From an uncultured Clostridia bacterium (lineage in GTDB: Bacteria > Bacillota > Clostridia > Christensenellales > UBA1242), in the NCBI GenBank assembly GCA_930990975.1, contig CAKNRR010000001.1:197756-261755 (forward strand): DNA of 64,000 nt, read 5' to 3'. Shown in pieces: positions 1-22,251 of the stretch; within the stretch, counting starts at the first letter, position 1; every line of letters starts with the position of its first letter. Made by a program: the position numbers and the translations under genes. Below the pieces are notes generated by a model. It was not told where the DNA came from, searched no databases, and worked only from the letters and a program-made list of their open reading frames with translations.

Positions 1-14
1 TTCCAGCAATATTT

Positions 15-365
15 ATGGCATTCAAAGAAACATTTAATGCAGGTTGGGCACCAGCAAAAGTTGTTTATCATCAAAATGTATTCAAATCATATGGTAAGGG
101 CATGAAAGCTGTGCTAAGAAGAGGGGCAAAAGTTTTCTCAACAGCTTTTATAATCTTTTTGCTTGCAATTGTTTTGTCAGTCGTTTTGGGACTTTATGCA
201 ATCATCATTATTTTGCCATTGATTTCACCACTTATTCATATATTTGAAATGGTTATGTTCTTCTCAAGCCAGGGTATGAGATTCTATGTTGATAATGACA
301 CGATTTTAACTCCAAAGAAACTTGAAGAAGTCGACAAGATTGAGGATGCAAAATATTTGATATAA
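15..365 (+). CDS. C-terminal part of a membrane protein (5' end may lie outside the window)
   Basis: ORF with a long hydrophobic stretch FIIFLLAIVLSVVLGLYAIIIILPLI; no convincing start context at the window edge. Confidence 0.5.
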   Translation: MAFKETFNAGWAPAKVVYHQNVFKSYGKGMKAVLRRGAKVFSTAFIIFLLAIVLSVVLGLYAIIIILPLISPLIHIFEMVMFFSSQGMRFYVDNDTILTPKKLEEVDKIEDAKYLI

Positions 366-13394: not shown

Positions 13395-14186
13395 ATGGCA
13401 AGAAAAATTGTTTTGACAAGTGGAAAAGGGGGAGTAGGCAAGACAACAGTATGTGCAAATCTTGGTATGTATTTGGCTAAACTTGGCTTTAGGGTGGTTC
13501 TTCTTGATGTAGATATAGGACTTAACAATTTGGATGTAGTTATGGGTGTAGAAGATAGGGTTATTTTTGATATAACAGATGTTATAATGGGGAAGTGTCG
13601 ACCAAAACAAGCATTAGTTCAAGACAAAAATATTTCCTCATTATACATTATGCCATCTTCTCATGCTTACAACAAAACTTCAATAATGGGTGAGCATATA
13701 AAAAATGTGATAGAACAACTGGATTCAAGCTTTGATTATATCTTGATAGATTGCCCTGCAGGTGTTGAAGCTGGCTTTCATAGGGCTGTTTTCCCAGCGA
13801 CAGAGGCAATCATTGTCGTGACACCTCATCTTTCATCAATAAGAGATGCGGATAAAGTCGTAGGACTTTTGAATGATTATGATATTCAATATAAAGGACT
13901 TGTCGTCAATAGAGTCAGGGGAGATATGCTTTTAAGTGGAGATATGATGAGTGTTGAAAATATTGTGAGAGCTCTCAACTTGCCACTGCTTGGTGTTATA
14001 CCAGAAGATGATGCAATAGGTGCTTCCAATTCTTTAGGTGGGCGTGTGCAGTCTATAGAAAGTGCAAGGGCTTTCACACTTTTAAGCGAGAATATTCACA
14101 ATGGCTCAAAAAAGATTTTTGATTGTACTTATAAATACAGAGGTCTTGTTGGCTATATAAAGCGAAACATAAAGAAACATGTTTAA
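13395..14186 (+). CDS. minD: Septum site-determining ATPase MinD
   Basis: GKGGVGKTTVCANLG deviant Walker A, LLDVDIGLNNLDVVMG, DYILIDCPAG, C-terminal amphipathic tail. Confidence 0.92.
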   Translation: MARKIVLTSGKGGVGKTTVCANLGMYLAKLGFRVVLLDVDIGLNNLDVVMGVEDRVIFDITDVIMGKCRPKQALVQDKNISSLYIMPSSHAYNKTSIMGEHIKNVIEQLDSSFDYILIDCPAGVEAGFHRAVFPATEAIIVVTPHLSSIRDADKVVGLLNDYDIQYKGLVVNRVRGDMLLSGDMMSVENIVRALNLPLLGVIPEDDAIGASNSLGGRVQSIESARAFTLLSENIHNGSKKIFDCTYKYRGLVGYIKRNIKKHV

Positions 14187-14270: not shown

Positions 14271-14510
14271 ATGGATGGAATTAATTATAAAATAAGCGAA
14301 AGATTGAATAATATGCTTGAAAGCGATAAGATAAGCGACCCGCAGCATATGTGCGAAATATTAAAAGATGAGCTTAAACCTCTTATAAAAAGCTATATTG
14401 AACTTCAAGATGATATAAAAGTAAGATTCAAAAAAGTGCAAGATAAAAACATCTTTTTTATAGAATTTGAAGCTGGAAGAATAAAACCTGTCGGCTACAT
14501 ACCATTATAA
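14271..14510 (+). CDS. Divergent MinE-like topological specificity factor candidate
   Basis: Directly after minD; ISERLNNMLESDK resembles MinE AKERLKLVLVHDR; EILKDELKPLIKSYIELQDDIKVRF resembles the MinE dimerisation domain (LKEDILEVISKYVEIDEDDVEV). Confidence 0.6.
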   Translation: MDGINYKISERLNNMLESDKISDPQHMCEILKDELKPLIKSYIELQDDIKVRFKKVQDKNIFFIEFEAGRIKPVGYIPL

Positions 14511-14689
14511 TTATTTAATAAAAGCTGAGCTAATAGAGGCGAAACCATATTTTAGTAGAACTTATGTTTATGTACTATGTAATGAAGTGTAGAGCACTAA
14601 AATTGTTAGTATTTTTAAAATTAGATGCTATATTTTAACATCACATAGTTTTTGTTATAAAGAAGATTATTGTTTTAAAGTTAGTCAAC

Positions 14690-14772
14690 GCCGAGTGATG
14701 TTGATTTGCTCGCAAACTCGCAAATCAGTTTTGCTTGCACAAAACTCTTGCTCAAGCAAGACATCACTCGGC
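14690..14772. repeat. Cloverleaf-forming inverted-repeat element (12-bp closing stem, three internal hairpins)
   Basis: GCCGAGTGATGT...ACATCACTCGGC enclosing TGATTTGC/GCAAATCA, GTTTTG/CAAAAC and CTTGC/GCAAG. Confidence 0.85.
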
Positions 14773-14865
14773 TTAAATAAACCCTCGCCACATTTAACAA
14801 GCAAATTATCTTATAAAGAACATTACAACATAAAAATAAAACACAATAAAAATAAACATAAAAAT

Positions 14866-14922
14866 AAAAACACATTATTTCAAGTAAGATTATCCTTACT
14901 TTTAATAATGTGTTTTTTTTTT
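14866..14922. terminator. Terminator-like hairpin with T tract
   Basis: AAACACATTATTTCAAGTAAGATTATCCTTACTTTTAATAATGTGTTTTTTTTTT. Confidence 0.7.
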
Positions 14923-14947
14923 GATTGTTTTTAATTTGGCATTAATT

Positions 14948-15542: not shown

Positions 15543-18500
15543 TTAAATTCTTTCCCAGCAAGCATAGAGTGTTGTGTCTGCTGTGATTGTGATTGATGTA
15601 AAACCACTTCCGCCAGTTGTGTAATTTCCCCAAGCACTTGTGCCCCAGCTTGTTGCTTTAAATGATTTTGGATCAATATGGAATGCAGTCAAATAAGCAG
15701 TGCAGGTTGGTGCGTACTGAGTGAGGTCAACTATAGTGCCTTCAAGCACCTTGAATGAATCTATAGGCGTAGGTTTGTCTTTCATGTCGCTTCCTGCAGT
15801 GCAACCCATAACAAGATACCATCTTAAGTCGAATGAAACAGTATAGTAATATTTTTCGGTAACAGTCCAATTAGCAGTGATTGTCATGTCCTCATTTGGC
15901 ATAACTGTGATGTTTTGGCTGTATCCTTCAAAAGTATAAGTTGTTTGAACAGTTTGAGTACCATCATCAATCACATATGATTCTTGTGAAGGAAGGGTGA
16001 TGACTTCGCCTTGATAAAGAGTATATTCAACATTTGTAGTATTGCCATATTGGCTGTTTACAATGACAGTGTATTTGTTTCTTATATGCAAAGTCAAATC
16101 TTTGTCTTCCATTACAAAATTGCTTGTGTATTCTATTGAATAACTGCTGTCTAAATAGTATTTTGTTTCAGAATTGATTTGCTTTAGTCCGCTAAGGTCA
16201 ATAGCCGAGCCTACTTGCACTCTCTCACTATAAATAACTTCATCATTGTCATAAATTGTCAAAAGTCTTGTCTTTTCAACTTTTTCTACATTCCATTTTG
16301 CGTAGAGAGTGATGTCATAGCTAGGCATATAGTTTAATGTGAACTCTTCAATAAAATCTTCTGATGTATACCAGCCATCAAAGTAATATGTTGTTGTGGT
16401 ATTATCAATTGTTTCAACTTTTTTATTTAAACTAGGAAGTGTGATTTCTTGACCTTCAAGCTTATAAATATTTTCAAATGCTTCTTCATTGAATGAAACA
16501 AAACTTATGGTGTGATAAGCAAGTGAGGCAACTTTCCATTTAGCATAGAGTGTTATATCTTTTCTAGGCATAGTGGTTGAATTGAAAATGCTTTCATCAG
16601 ACAAGCTTTCATCAGTGTGCCAAGAAACGAAACTATAGCTTTTTTGTGTTTTTCCATCATCAATGACATAGCTTTCAAGACTAGGCAATGTCAATGTGTC
16701 TTTATAGCGATAGCTTTGGCTTTCAATGACTTGGTCGCTGTTTGTAACAAAATTGATTGTGTATTTGATGTCTTTAGACATGCTCCAGTTGCCATTGCTT
16801 GCTTCCCATTCGCTTTCTGCATCATATTTATATGAATTTATAAAGTCATACAAAGCTTGCATGTCAACTGTCTTACCATAGTCAACAATTTGAGTGTCAT
16901 TTGTTGAAAGGGTGAGTGTAAAGATATCTGCAAGAGGCATATATAAGCTTAATCCAAGTCTTTGAATGTAGTTTTTGCCATTGTTGTCTTGAGATAAGCC
17001 AAGAGTAATATCCATAGAATCAAGCTCAGGACTGTTTGTGATTTCAGCCATATTTAGGCTTAAAGAGTAGTTTGTGTTATCTTGGACAGTAAATGATTTT
17101 ATAATATTGCCATAGTCAATAGGCTCAGTTCTTGGGTTATCCATTGATTCTTTGATTGCGTTCATGATTGTGTCAGTGAAACCAAAACAATATTGAACAT
17201 AATACATAGGGTCTGCAAGGAATGTGTCTATTGAAATTTTTGTACTCTTTTCGTATGTTCTAGTGCTTGTGCCAAACATAATATCAACTTTTTCACTTCT
17301 ATAAAGATAGATATAGCCAGCCTTATAATAGATATATAAATATCTGTCAGAACCACTTTCTGTGTCACCAAACTCATAAGGTACATCATTGTTTACACCA
17401 ATCATAGTTGGGATTTCGCCAATAACACCATAAAGTTCAATGTCGCCTTTGCCTACAACTTTGATAAACATTTCATAAGGAACATTCCAAGAAATATCAA
17501 TTCTAGCAAGAGAACCCAAGATGTCAAGGCTTCCTTTAACATGGAAATCTGTACCCGTTGTCATATTGATAAGAGCCTTAACAAGTTCATTCGCTCCAGA
17601 AATATCAATATAGTTTTTAGTTTGGTCAACTCCAACAAATTCTCCCATTTGATTGAAGTTTATGTTTATTTGCATTGTTTGCCCTTCAATTACAAAATTG
17701 GAAATGCTGAGGGTGTTTAAGGTATTGTTGTCGCAGTTGAGTGAAATGATGATGTCATTTGCATTTTCATCGTTGTTCATTTTTGCACCATCGATTGTTA
17801 TTATAAAATCATTTCCTTTGGTTTCAATCTTTTTAACCATTTTTACAATTTCAACAACATCTTCTATTGAAATACCTTTAAGTTCAGTTTCAATTTGAGA
17901 GAAGTCTAAATCTAAGTCAATGTCTTTTAAGAAAGGTATAGAATTTGCATCAATTCCAAAGACTTCAAGAACGATGTATATAAGTTCAGCAATGTTTTGA
18001 TTGTCAATCTTAAGACATAAGCCATTGAAGTCAATGTAGAACATGCCGTCTTCAATGTTTGCACTGATGTTCATATTTTCCATATTTGGAGAATTGATTA
18101 TAGCGCTTAATTTTAGGGTAGAGGTTAAATCAAGTTGCATAGAAGCGTTTATAATTGATTCTCCCATAAGAATTTCTGCATCAAGGTCAACTTGTTTGTC
18201 TTTGAAATAATCAATTGCGATTTGAGCAATATTTAAAAGCTTTGCAACATCAACATAATCGCCAGATGGAGCAAAAATCAAAGGTTTGCCTTCAACAGTG
18301 ATGTCAGCATAGATGTCATTGAAACTTAAAGAAGCTCCGCTAAGCATGTTGTTTTCAATAGTTGCGACAATTTCAAGCCCGTCTAAAGCACTGATTTTTA
18401 TATAGTTTTGTGTTATTTCAATTCTTGCGTCTTTGATTATGTCTAAAATTTTGTTTATGTCAAATTCGTTTTGAGATGTTCCTTCGGCTGCTTCTCCAGA

Positions 18501-20747
18501 TGTTTCTTGGCTGTTTTGTCCCAATTTAGAGAGCAATTCGTCAAGCATTTTGTCTACATCAAGATTAAAGTTAGAAAGCAAGAATTCTTTTACAAGTTCC
18601 ATATCATTAATATCAAACACAACTTTAATATTCTCAGCTGTGATATAAATCTTGTTTTCGTAATACATGATGTTGATGTTGAGGCCTGCGTATTCAAGTG
18701 TTGCAGTCAAAGCCAAAGCATTGTTTTCGTAGTTCAGTGCACCAATGATATTGAATTCTTGGTATTTTGCATTGAAGCTGAAGTAGAATTTGTTTGCAAT
18801 GACATAATCATATACATTTAAAACGACATCTACAAGGCTATCTAGGGTAGTGTATTCTTCATCATTAAAAGTAGGGATGCTTATTTCTTGATTTGAGCCA
18901 ATCAAATTCATAGAAACATTTATGTTGTCGTAGTTAAAATTGATTGCAATTTGATTTGATGAGTTTTCAATGTTGAAAACAATCTTATCTAATATAGTGA
19001 TTGAAATTCCGTTTTCATCGGCACTAAAATTTGTAATAAGTTTAGGATTGATTTGTGGATTTAAGATTTCTTTAATCTTTTCTATCAAATCGCTAGAGTC
19101 AACATTTTCAATGTTAAAATGTTTTAAAATCTTGTTGAGTGTATCAGGAAGTTTGTCAAAACTTGTCATAATTTTGCTGTCTGACAATGTCATATAAACC
19201 TTGTCACCAACAACATCAATACTAATTTGTTGCCCAAGAACGATAGTTGTCAAATTGATATAAAGTTCTTCACCTTTGCAGATTTTATAATCTATATCAA
19301 ATTGAAGGTCATTGTATTGTAAATTAATTTGTCCTGATAAAGTGTTGTTTTGCAAAACTTCAAGAGCATTTTCTATAGTTGGAAGAAGACTTGCAAGGTC
19401 AATATAGTCAGATACATCATTTGAGAGAACAATGTCTTTAAATTCTACAAATTGAAGTTGGAAGTTGATGTCGCCATTGAATGTTATTCCTGTTATATTG
19501 TCCTCTTTTGATTGCAAAACAATATCTCCAATATCTTTTAAAGTTATGATGGTATTATCTCCATCTTTAACAATATTTTCAAGTATGCTTAAGTCAATGC
19601 TGCTTAAATCAAAATTTCCTAAATCAATTTCTCCAACAATGGCAGAGAAATCTCCGCTTTGAATGGCGTTAAGCAGTTTATCTATTAAGTCTACAGGCAA
19701 ATTTAGGTCAAGATATTGATTTAAAATGTTCAAAAGTTCGTCAATTTCATTTAAGCTATATTTAAAGAATAGGTTGTTGTATTCTAAATATAATGTGCTG
19801 TCAATCAAATATAAGTTTATAGATTGGTCTTTAATATTAAGATTTATTTTTGCAGATTTATCTAATATGCTGAGGTCTATTTTCCCAGTTAGTGCAATTT
19901 CTCCCACATTTACATTGAATGTTGCACCAAAATTATCTTGATTTAAAAGGTTTACAAAATCGTTTATAAGTCCAGTTATATTTGTCAAATCAATATAACT
20001 TTCCTCATCTTTTTCAGGGATAATAAGCTCGCTAGGGTAATCAATTGTTGCATTTACTTCAATTGCAATACTGTCTTCAATAGTGATTCTTGGTAAAGCG
20101 ATTCCAATAAGGCTGTAATCCTTGTCGCAAATCAAATCAATGCTTTCTACAACAGGGAGTGAAACACGCAAAGTTACAGAGTCACCGTTTTCAATCTTTT
20201 CAAATTCAGAGAATAAACCCACTATTGAATTGAGGTCAAATTCTTCAAAGTCTATTCCCAAATCAGGCATCTCAACATTAAATAATGTTAAAATTTCATT
20301 GATAGTGTTCATAAGATTGTTGGTAGAGATGAAAAATTTTCCATTAAGAATGTCAAAGAAAAGATTTCCGTTTTGATATGTTATTCCAAGACCAAGGACC
20401 TGTTGGTTATATTCAACATTGATATTGCCTTGAACGCCAATATTTTCAATTCCATTTGAGAGGTCTACTTGAGTGGCTACATCAAGTTCGATTTGTGATT
20501 GATTATATTCAACGAAGGCTGACAAATCAAGACTTATGGCAGGGGATGATGTGAATTTTTCAAACATCGCACTGATTTCTTCAGGCACGACAACTTCTTC
20601 TTCAGTATTGTCAGTTCCTCCAGTTCCAGTATTATTTTGAGCCTTATTAAAATTATTCATAGAAACAGTTATGACACCATAAGCTGATGCCACAGAAACC
20701 ACTAAATAAATAATTGAATAAAGTAAGAATTTAGATAATTTTCTCAT
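15543..20747 (-). CDS. Very large exported/surface protein with about six repeated modules and C-terminal InlB-type (Listeria-Bacteroides) repeats
   Basis: N-terminal TM (LLYSIIYLVVSVASAYGVI); repeated YIDLxxLLxxxxxxL modules; C-terminal 'YSFVSWHTDESLSDESIF...MPRKDITLYAKW' repeats. Start chosen at the second Met, with AGAGGCG ribosome-binding site (ORF-track start 20780). Confidence 0.85.
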   Translation of the reverse strand: MRKLSKFLLYSIIYLVVSVASAYGVITVSMNNFNKAQNNTGTGGTDNTEEEVVVPEEISAMFEKFTSSPAISLDLSAFVEYNQSQIELDVATQVDLSNGIENIGVQGNINVEYNQQVLGLGITYQNGNLFFDILNGKFFISTNNLMNTINEILTLFNVEMPDLGIDFEEFDLNSIVGLFSEFEKIENGDSVTLRVSLPVVESIDLICDKDYSLIGIALPRITIEDSIAIEVNATIDYPSELIIPEKDEESYIDLTNITGLINDFVNLLNQDNFGATFNVNVGEIALTGKIDLSILDKSAKINLNIKDQSINLYLIDSTLYLEYNNLFFKYSLNEIDELLNILNQYLDLNLPVDLIDKLLNAIQSGDFSAIVGEIDLGNFDLSSIDLSILENIVKDGDNTIITLKDIGDIVLQSKEDNITGITFNGDINFQLQFVEFKDIVLSNDVSDYIDLASLLPTIENALEVLQNNTLSGQINLQYNDLQFDIDYKICKGEELYINLTTIVLGQQISIDVVGDKVYMTLSDSKIMTSFDKLPDTLNKILKHFNIENVDSSDLIEKIKEILNPQINPKLITNFSADENGISITILDKIVFNIENSSNQIAINFNYDNINVSMNLIGSNQEISIPTFNDEEYTTLDSLVDVVLNVYDYVIANKFYFSFNAKYQEFNIIGALNYENNALALTATLEYAGLNINIMYYENKIYITAENIKVVFDINDMELVKEFLLSNFNLDVDKMLDELLSKLGQNSQETSGEAAEGTSQNEFDINKILDIIKDARIEITQNYIKISALDGLEIVATIENNMLSGASLSFNDIYADITVEGKPLIFAPSGDYVDVAKLLNIAQIAIDYFKDKQVDLDAEILMGESIINASMQLDLTSTLKLSAIINSPNMENMNISANIEDGMFYIDFNGLCLKIDNQNIAELIYIVLEVFGIDANSIPFLKDIDLDLDFSQIETELKGISIEDVVEIVKMVKKIETKGNDFIITIDGAKMNNDENANDIIISLNCDNNTLNTLSISNFVIEGQTMQININFNQMGEFVGVDQTKNYIDISGANELVKALINMTTGTDFHVKGSLDILGSLARIDISWNVPYEMFIKVVGKGDIELYGVIGEIPTMIGVNNDVPYEFGDTESGSDRYLYIYYKAGYIYLYRSEKVDIMFGTSTRTYEKSTKISIDTFLADPMYYVQYCFGFTDTIMNAIKESMDNPRTEPIDYGNIIKSFTVQDNTNYSLSLNMAEITNSPELDSMDITLGLSQDNNGKNYIQRLGLSLYMPLADIFTLTLSTNDTQIVDYGKTVDMQALYDFINSYKYDAESEWEASNGNWSMSKDIKYTINFVTNSDQVIESQSYRYKDTLTLPSLESYVIDDGKTQKSYSFVSWHTDESLSDESIFNSTTMPRKDITLYAKWKVASLAYHTISFVSFNEEAFENIYKLEGQEITLPSLNKKVETIDNTTTTYYFDGWYTSEDFIEEFTLNYMPSYDITLYAKWNVEKVEKTRLLTIYDNDEVIYSERVQVGSAIDLSGLKQINSETKYYLDSSYSIEYTSNFVMEDKDLTLHIRNKYTVIVNSQYGNTTNVEYTLYQGEVITLPSQESYVIDDGTQTVQTTYTFEGYSQNITVMPNEDMTITANWTVTEKYYYTVSFDLRWYLVMGCTAGSDMKDKPTPIDSFKVLEGTIVDLTQYAPTCTAYLTAFHIDPKSFKATSWGTSAWGNYTTGGSGFTSITITADTTLYACWERI

Positions 20748-20757
20748 AATACGCCTC

Positions 20758-22251
20758 TTATACAGGGATGTCTGTTTCACAATTAAAGAAATATTCTGTC
20801 TTTAATGTGCCAGTACATTTATTTTTAATACCGAAAGCGATAACACTATATTTTTCGGTAACATCAGTGCTAATCAAGTTCCAGTTTTCGTCAATGACGA
20901 TGGTTTGAGTAACAGAAGAAAATTCAGGCGGACTTCCTGATAATCCACTGGTTTGCTTAACTTGTTTAGCATATCCTAGAACACTTGTAATAGGGTCCAG
21001 TTCGACAGTAAATGAATAGTAACCAGTTTCTTCATCATAAGAAATTTCGCTAGATGAGATAATAGTTTTGCTTGAAATAATATAAGGTTGAATCACATTT
21101 GGAAGTGATCCTGCATAATCAATATAGGCTTGATTTGTATAAGTTTGATTGAACACCCATTCAGCGTCATCATAGACAATGTTTTTGCCCTTATAGAAAT
21201 CAACATTTTTGGCACCTTCTTCCATATATGAGCAGATGGCAATATCAAGCATACCTTTACTGATACTTTCAAATGAATATCTTTGACCGTCAAAGTTACG
21301 CTCTCCATAAACTGATTGTTTAGCAATTCCTGCGTCAACTTGCCCATTGCCAATTGATTGATAAGTGTCAGCAAGGGTGGCATTATATTGGGCAAGGATA
21401 AAGTTTTGGTCGGCAGTCAGTTTGCTAGGATTGTTTAGTTCTGAGCTTTTAGCTACTTCGAGCCAATTCTCTTGATTTGAAGTGATTCCGTAAACTTGTT
21501 TCAAAATTTCGTCAGCACTCACTTCATACTCGCTTCTGTTATAATCATTATAGTTTACTTCTGATCTAAGGACTGTGTTAAAATACCACACTCCAAGCCC
21601 GCTTCCAGTAAAGATACCAAGAACAAGCAAGACACCCATTATACGCATTCTTTCTTTGAATGATTTTTTGTGCTTTTCGTCATTTTCTTGTTTTTTGGAT
21701 TTCTTTTCCTTGACTTTCTTTTTCTTATAAGTGCCATCAAGAGTAGCGACATCTGATTGAGCAGTGCTTGCAGCTGGCTGTGGAGCAGGTGAGTCTTCTT
21801 CAATCTCATACATATCAATTTGTTGCTCATCGTCAAGGATACTGCCTTTTGCTGAAAGCTTTTTGACTCTGCTGTTTTTCTTCTTTAGCTGAAAACTTCC
21901 ATCAGAATTTTGAACAAACTCATAAGATGATTTTTTGGCCGTTTTGCCAGTGGCTTCTACTTCTTTGCTGTAATAAGAACCGTCTTCTTTTTGAACAAAG
22001 ATGATATCTTTATTATCTTTAATTTCTGAAGTATTATCATCACTATTCACTTGCACATTTGCGACTTTTTCATCTTTTGAATTGCTATCAGTTTGATTTT
22101 TATTTCCATCAAAAAAATGGGACTCTTCAGTTCCTTCCTTTGTATTTGTTTCTAAATTTTTATATTCTTCCATTCCCTTAGAAAAAGAATGGTTTTTATT
22201 TTTACCTTTTTTAGTCATGTTCTTGCGCCCCTTTTTACTTGGGCTCAGCAC
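20758..22251 (-). CDS. Single-pass membrane protein with a long charged N-terminal region
   Basis: Lys-rich N-terminus, TM segment MRIMGVLLVLGIFTGSGLGVWYF, C-terminal extracellular domain; same orientation as, and adjacent to, the giant surface protein. Confidence 0.7.
   Translation of the reverse strand: MLSPSKKGRKNMTKKGKNKNHSFSKGMEEYKNLETNTKEGTEESHFFDGNKNQTDSNSKDEKVANVQVNSDDNTSEIKDNKDIIFVQKEDGSYYSKEVEATGKTAKKSSYEFVQNSDGSFQLKKKNSRVKKLSAKGSILDDEQQIDMYEIEEDSPAPQPAASTAQSDVATLDGTYKKKKVKEKKSKKQENDEKHKKSFKERMRIMGVLLVLGIFTGSGLGVWYFNTVLRSEVNYNDYNRSEYEVSADEILKQVYGITSNQENWLEVAKSSELNNPSKLTADQNFILAQYNATLADTYQSIGNGQVDAGIAKQSVYGERNFDGQRYSFESISKGMLDIAICSYMEEGAKNVDFYKGKNIVYDDAEWVFNQTYTNQAYIDYAGSLPNVIQPYIISSKTIISSSEISYDEETGYYSFTVELDPITSVLGYAKQVKQTSGLSGSPPEFSSVTQTIVIDENWNLISTDVTEKYSVIAFGIKNKCTGTLKTEYFFNCETDIPV

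What the first reader, a model, noticed from the sequence alone, without database searches (positions are those of the whole stretch)
14690..14772. 83-bp perfect cloverleaf/cruciform element
GCCGAGTGATGT pairs perfectly with ACATCACTCGGC (12 bp), enclosing three consecutive hairpins: TGATTTGC/GCAAATCA, GTTTTG/CAAAAC and CTTGC-TCAA-GCAAG. It is much more GC-rich than its AT-rich intergenic surroundings, and nothing else in the window resembles it. Possible roles: a REP/MITE-like mobile element, IS200/IS605-type ssDNA substrate, recombination junction substrate, or a small structured RNA.
Basis: seen in the sequence. Interest (0 to 1): 0.7.

Follow-up and report, generated by a model that had tools for sequence, protein, structure and literature searches.

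The report
Cloverleaf-shaped mobile DNA repeat family
The 83-base cloverleaf is one diverged copy of a previously unlisted family of tiny, protein-free mobile DNA repeats in uncultured gut Clostridia, whose copies keep the same four-armed fold while their base sequence changes almost freely.

Summary
The cloverleaf at 14690-14772 is real (MFE -39.1 kcal/mol, z -6.5; none of 702 shuffled windows reaches its score). It is single-copy by sequence but not by shape. A structure-only scan finds about 11 such elements in the host genome, all intergenic, and more in related genomes. Complete relatives are ~140-150 bp units with TTTATATTA at both ends. They form tandem arrays, reach 19 copies per genome, and occur at 99% identity between genomes otherwise 70% identical, with unrelated flanks, so they move. 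Stems show many two-sided compensatory changes, and G-T mismatches are about as frequent as A-C, which favours a constraint on DNA over RNA. No Rfam match; no Y1/RAYT or IS110 enzyme is needed. Best reading: a non-autonomous mobile DNA repeat recognised largely by its four-way-junction shape and moved by an unidentified enzyme. The window copy itself is probably old and no longer mobile.

The parts
14690..14772 (-). Cloverleaf element (perfect four-way junction); family polarity is on the minus strand
   Evidence: CM R1 (built without it) 41.2 bits on - against 26.2 on +
14690..14701 (.). Outer stem, one arm GCCGAGTGATGT
   Evidence: Perfect complement of 14761-14772
14702..14727 (.). Hairpin TGATTTGC-(10)-GCAAATCA; third hairpin (h3) in family orientation
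14728..14745 (.). Hairpin GTTTTG-(6)-CAAAAC; middle hairpin (h2)
14747..14760 (.). Hairpin CTTGC-TCAA-GCAAG; hypervariable first hairpin (h1) in family orientation
   Evidence: h1 variability
14761..14772 (.). Outer stem, other arm ACATCACTCGGC
14574..14649 (+). Decayed second copy of the same family, inverted relative to the first
   Evidence: nhmmer E 2.5e-13; CM R1 45.9 bits
14523..14573 (+). Remnant of the left module (AAGYYGA...CTGATG) of the decayed unit
   Evidence: By eye against units listed; inference
14271..14510 (+). minE-like gene just upstream (context)
   Evidence: Pfam MinE E 3.6e-4, below the curated cut-off; directly follows minD 13395-14186
14851..14932 (.). Long bidirectional terminator-like hairpin between minE and the convergent zinc-ribbon gene (context)
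   Evidence: 38-nt arms, 82% complementary

Best explanation
The element is a diverged copy of a family of non-autonomous mobile DNA repeats of the family-level gut Clostridia clade that hosts it. A complete unit is ~140-150 bp: a left stem module, then a cloverleaf of an outer stem and three hairpins packed without spacers (a perfect four-way junction), with TTTATATTA at each end. Shown: dispersal, tandem arrays, near-identical copies at unrelated sites in different genera, decayed copies, intergenic position, conserved shape with compensatory base changes. Inferred: an enzyme encoded elsewhere recognises the junction shape, in extruded cruciform or single-stranded DNA, more than the sequence, and cuts and rejoins units at AT-rich TTTAT-type sites. 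Because shape rather than sequence is recognised, stems can change as long as they stay paired. The window copy lacks the TTTATATTA ends and a clear left module, so it is probably an old, immobile copy beside a second decayed copy in the minE 3' region.
For: Structure-only scan of the host genome: 11 elements scoring 55-94; best shuffle of the 64-kb window 52 in 702. CM R1, made without the window copy, finds it at 41.2 bits on the minus strand, E 2.1e-6 in 718 kb, and only two places in the window; best hit in 400 kb of order-level outgroups 21.4 bits. In the outer stem GTGATG/CATCAC is kept while three adjacent pairs are replaced on both sides. Units 98.6-99.3% identical over 147 bp between host and G041, whose background identity is 70%, with unrelated flanks; unit 94.7% identical to G302 of another genus. 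28 of 148 family genomes carry it, up to 19 copies, with tandem spacing of 146-157 bp. Covariation: 10 of 34 pairs changed on both sides, 23 cells against 6.5 in shuffles, 0 of 500 as high. G-T 46 against A-C 36 mismatches in 1676 cells. All 11 host elements intergenic.
Against: No mobilising enzyme identified: Y1 absent from 7 of 10 element-rich genomes, IS110 absent from 11 of 11, and no recurrent recombinase gene beside 29 units. No direct repeat at the ends of the window copy, and no empty site seen for it. Most host cloverleafs other than the repeat family score poorly with R1, so one origin for all of them is not proven. Some of the 41.2 bits is generic: opposite-strand hits of perfect cloverleafs reach 23-37 bits.
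Confidence: 0.65

Rival explanations
1. A structured RNA: the cloverleaf acts in the 3' UTR of the minD-minE transcript (stability, RNase III site, termination) or as a small RNA, and spread is secondary.
For: It lies between minE and the next terminator-like hairpin; cloverleafs also lie just after minE in L149, L185 and L189; compensatory changes.
Against: No Rfam family; both strands fold equally well; G-T about equal to A-C; no classical U-tract terminator after the outer stem; most relatives lack any cloverleaf after minE; the 4 minE cases are about what intergenic density predicts.
Confidence: 0.18
2. A passive by-product: palindromes arise and are perfected by template switching at replication forks, with no recognising enzyme or function.
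For: Perfect stems, two-sided changes with few G-U intermediates, hairpin tips replaced wholesale between two closely related G302 elements.
Against: It does not explain exactly three flush hairpins with a fixed polarity, tandem units with constant ends, or 99% identical units at unrelated sites.
Confidence: 0.08
3. Target hybrid: a conserved two-hairpin AT-rich module (h2+h3) has inserted into one arm of an unrelated long palindrome (outer stem + h1).
For: Six G302 elements share 82-89% identity only over h2+h3, while the outer stem and h1 are unrelated but perfectly paired; Yersinia YPAL elements target sequences that span or adjoin dyad symmetry (PMC2229807).
Against: In the TTTAT unit family the outer stem travels with the unit and only h1 is fast; no empty palindrome found.
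Confidence: 0.15
4. REP-type or IS200/IS605-derived element moved by a Y1 (RAYT/TnpA) transposase.
For: All three long Y1 genes (one intact, two disrupted) in the element-rich genomes lie near a unit: G041 200 bp, G420 616 bp, G472 2.4 kb.
Against: Host has only a Y1 fragment and 7 of 10 element-rich genomes have none; IS200 end hairpins are not shared with units; proximity may reflect repeat-rich contig ends.
Confidence: 0.08

Closest known systems
bcr1 repeat of the Bacillus cereus group
   Same: Small non-coding intergenic repeat with mobile features, MITE-like, mobility linked to a TTTAT motif and a site-specific-recombination-like mechanism (PMC6542083; PMC3446304); size 147-167 bp (PMC2267715). 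Complete relatives here have TTTAT(ATTA) at both ends.
   Different: bcr1 is described as restricted to the B. cereus group; the bcr1 sequence was not compared; a three-hairpin four-way junction with freely changing stems is not described in the papers read. The window copy lacks TTTAT ends.
YPAL, EFAR, ERIC, RUP, NEMIS (bacterial MITEs)
   Same: Small, non-coding, folded, intergenic, presumed moved in trans; YPAL targets lie at dyad symmetry (PMC2229807; PMC3733652).
   Different: Those families are recognised by sequence; most form a long stem loop, not a flush cloverleaf with hypervariable stems. That EFAR inserts into stem-loops is from memory, not checked.
REP/REPIN with RAYT
   Same: Palindromic intergenic DNA moved as structure
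   Different: No GTAG-tagged 20-40 bp palindromes, no RAYT in host.
Integron attC sites
   Same: Structure recognised over sequence in folded single strands (established knowledge, not tested here)
   Different: Three hairpins rather than one imperfect hairpin; no cassette ORFs; integrase not searched.

Membership tests
Cloverleaf repeat family defined here (CM R1) | Full-length match to outer stem + three hairpins | tested here: met
   41.2 bits, positions 1-82, minus strand; model made without this copy
Cloverleaf repeat family defined here (CM R1) | Left module and TTTATATTA ends | tested here: not met
   Flanks GTTAGTCAAC / TTAAATAAAC; present in relatives
Bacterial MITE | Short, non-coding, terminal inverted repeats | tested here: met
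   83 bp, 12-bp inverted ends; only a spurious ORF of 79 codons overlaps
Bacterial MITE | Target-site duplication | tested here: not met
   None at the window copy; TTTAT on both sides in most complete relatives
Bacterial MITE | Parent transposon with matching ends | not tested
   Not searched systematically; no recurrent recombinase beside units
bcr1 | Sequence homology to bcr1 | not tested
   Primary paper not held
REP/RAYT | RAYT (Y1_Tnp) gene in the genome | tested here: not met
   Only a 189-bp fragment at C5:904-1092
IS200/IS605 derivative | Y1 transposase in element-bearing genomes, shared end hairpins | tested here: not met
   3 of 10 genomes have Y1; ends not shared
IS110 / bridge RNA elements | DEDD IS110 transposase | tested here: not met
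   0 of 11 genomes
Known structured RNA | Rfam match at gathering score | tested here: not met
   Only a tRNA elsewhere in the window
Intrinsic terminator | GC hairpin followed by T run | tested here: not met
   No T run after the outer stem on either strand; the scanner flags only the internal 6-bp hairpin on the minus strand
Integron attC | Integrase and R/L core boxes | not tested
   No search made

The most novel reading that the evidence does not exclude
A class of mobile DNA defined by shape alone: a perfect four-way junction is the recognition signal for an unknown structure-specific recombinase, so stem sequences are free to change and one hairpin is even hypervariable, possibly because a conserved two-hairpin module embeds itself in palindromes.
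Probability: 0.35. Interest if true: 0.8.

Novelty: new variant of a known kind. Interest (0 to 1): 0.62.

Why it matters
Sequence-based repeat finders miss these elements because copies share a fold rather than a sequence; a shape-based scan and a covariance model reveal a mobile family across a large group of uncultured gut bacteria. If the shape is the signal, it is a natural Holliday-junction-like substrate for an undiscovered enzyme and a clean test case for DNA-level selection on secondary structure.

Tried and rejected
DNA BLAST for copies of the 83-mer: only itself in the host and only short fragments in 100 relatives. Viral contigs searched for an exact 20-mer of the window element and a 23-mer of the repeat unit: none. 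Phage and plasmid collections searched with the repeat unit: none. A conserved cis element after minE: rejected, most relatives have none there and those that do have unrelated sequences. A minE hot spot: 4 of 76 loci, about what intergenic density predicts. gyrB-gyrA gap: the host and G022/G029 carry different cloverleafs there, most others none. A tRNA-Ser-linked cloverleaf in G302 turned out to be part of a separate ~240-bp tRNA-end insert. First covariation count used a third-hairpin register one column off; redone.

Full report
What is there. It is far more stable than shuffled sequence (z -6.5), and no shuffle of the 64-kb window reaches its structure score in 702 trials (61 against at most 52). 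It sits in an AT-rich gap between a MinD/MinE pair and a convergent zinc-ribbon gene, upstream of a long terminator-like inverted repeat. Rfam and ARAGORN see nothing there.

Sequence search misleads, shape search does not. The 83-mer has one copy in the host genome, and in 100 relatives only short fragments match. The gap after minE in a relative, G007, nevertheless holds a cloverleaf of unrelated sequence. I therefore wrote a scanner for an outer stem enclosing packed hairpins, fetched the whole host genome in tiles (1,412,298 bases) and scanned it. Eleven elements score 55-94, each with exactly three hairpins although two to four were allowed, and nearly no unpaired base. All are intergenic by ORF calling. 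The same architecture occurs in related genomes, with eight in 308 kb of G302. In shuffles of 1.29 Mb of relatives the top scores were 60, 56 and 49, so scores above about 60 are safe and 50-60 are not individually. Three order-level outgroups gave none in 400 kb, but their GC is higher.

A mobile repeat family. Three host elements belong to a sequence repeat with 15 copies, many decayed. The complete unit runs from TTTAT-ATTATCGGAAG, through a left stem module, to ...CATCACATAG-TTTATATTA. One unit is 145/147 identical in L190 (= G041), with unrelated flanks, while host and G041 are otherwise about 70% identical over 158 HSPs. G302, of another genus, carries a unit 94.7% identical against a 69.8% background; its 82-nt cloverleaf is identical to a host copy. 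Tandem arrays share a single TTTATATTA between units.

Covariance model. From 12 copies (alignment A1), none of them the window element, I built model R1. Base pairs show 10 of 34 positions changed on both sides, 23 such cells against 6.5 in column shuffles with 0 of 500 as high, and little signal when the pairing is slid. R1 finds 28 of 148 genomes of the family in 17 of 42 genera, up to 19 copies, with arrays at 146-157-bp spacing, and 4 genomes outside the family in a class-wide sample of 194. In the window it finds only two places: 14574-14649 on + (45.9 bits) and 14690-14772 on - (41.2 bits). Outgroup maximum is 21.4 bits. Part of the window score is generic shape: perfect cloverleafs read on the wrong strand score 23-37. 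The window element scores 26.2 on +, so about 15 bits come from its minus-strand polarity and sequence. Its outer stem keeps GTGATG/CATCAC and has three adjacent pairs replaced on both sides relative to the family. I take it as a diverged member; most other host cloverleafs are not reached by R1 at good scores, so their common origin is open.

DNA or RNA? In 51 distinct family members, G-T mismatches (46) and A-C mismatches (36) are about equal among 1676 paired cells. Selection on an RNA would keep G-U and purge A-C. Both strands also fold equally well. This favours a DNA-level constraint, but the cells are not independent because copies are related.

Which part varies. In six G302 elements the homologous core is only the second and third hairpins (82-89% identity), while outer stem and first hairpin are unrelated yet perfectly paired. 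In the TTTAT family the first hairpin is again the fast one. This suggests either a hypervariable hairpin or a two-hairpin module inserted in a palindrome; I cannot decide between them.

What moves it. Unknown. The host has only a Y1 fragment, 7 of 10 element-rich genomes have no Y1, and none of 11 has IS110. No gene family recurs beside the units except shared neighbour genes. The three long Y1 genes found in these genomes do lie near units, which I note but do not rely on.

Literature. The nearest description found is bcr1 of B. cereus (mobile, TTTAT motif: PMC6542083; size in PMC2267715) and other bacterial MITEs (PMC2229807; PMC3733652). Four targeted searches for a cloverleaf or four-way-junction repeat found none, but subscription papers are mostly not held.

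Noticed in passing
L278:103-383 and L278:962-1201 (G302:C7): A ~240-bp highly structured, non-coding insert at the 3' end of a tRNA-Ser gene, with the tRNA end (CGAATCCTGTGTCCTCCGCCA) repeated at its far side; a second copy 94% identical lies 0.8 kb away outside a tRNA. No Rfam match.
   Followed up: partly
G041:C7:11827-12520, G420:C2:115238-116247, G472:C176:126-2952: IS200-type tnpA genes lie unusually close to cloverleaf units in all three element-rich genomes that have a long Y1 gene.
   Followed up: partly
L225:1251-1420 and L228 (G022, G029 gyrB-gyrA gap): A cloverleaf sits at the tip of a longer inverted repeat (GCTTGTTTTCATTTTAAC ... GTTAAAATGAAAACAAGC), so its stem is about 30 bp long; inherited by both sister species.
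   Followed up: no
L319/L217 (G181) and L321 (G354): Units lie after the same orthologous gene pair in two genera but in opposite orientation, as if inserted twice into one gap.
   Followed up: no
window 15543-20780: A 1745-aa predicted surface protein with repeated segments near its C-terminal end starts the next operon; similar sequences follow minE in many relatives.
   Followed up: no
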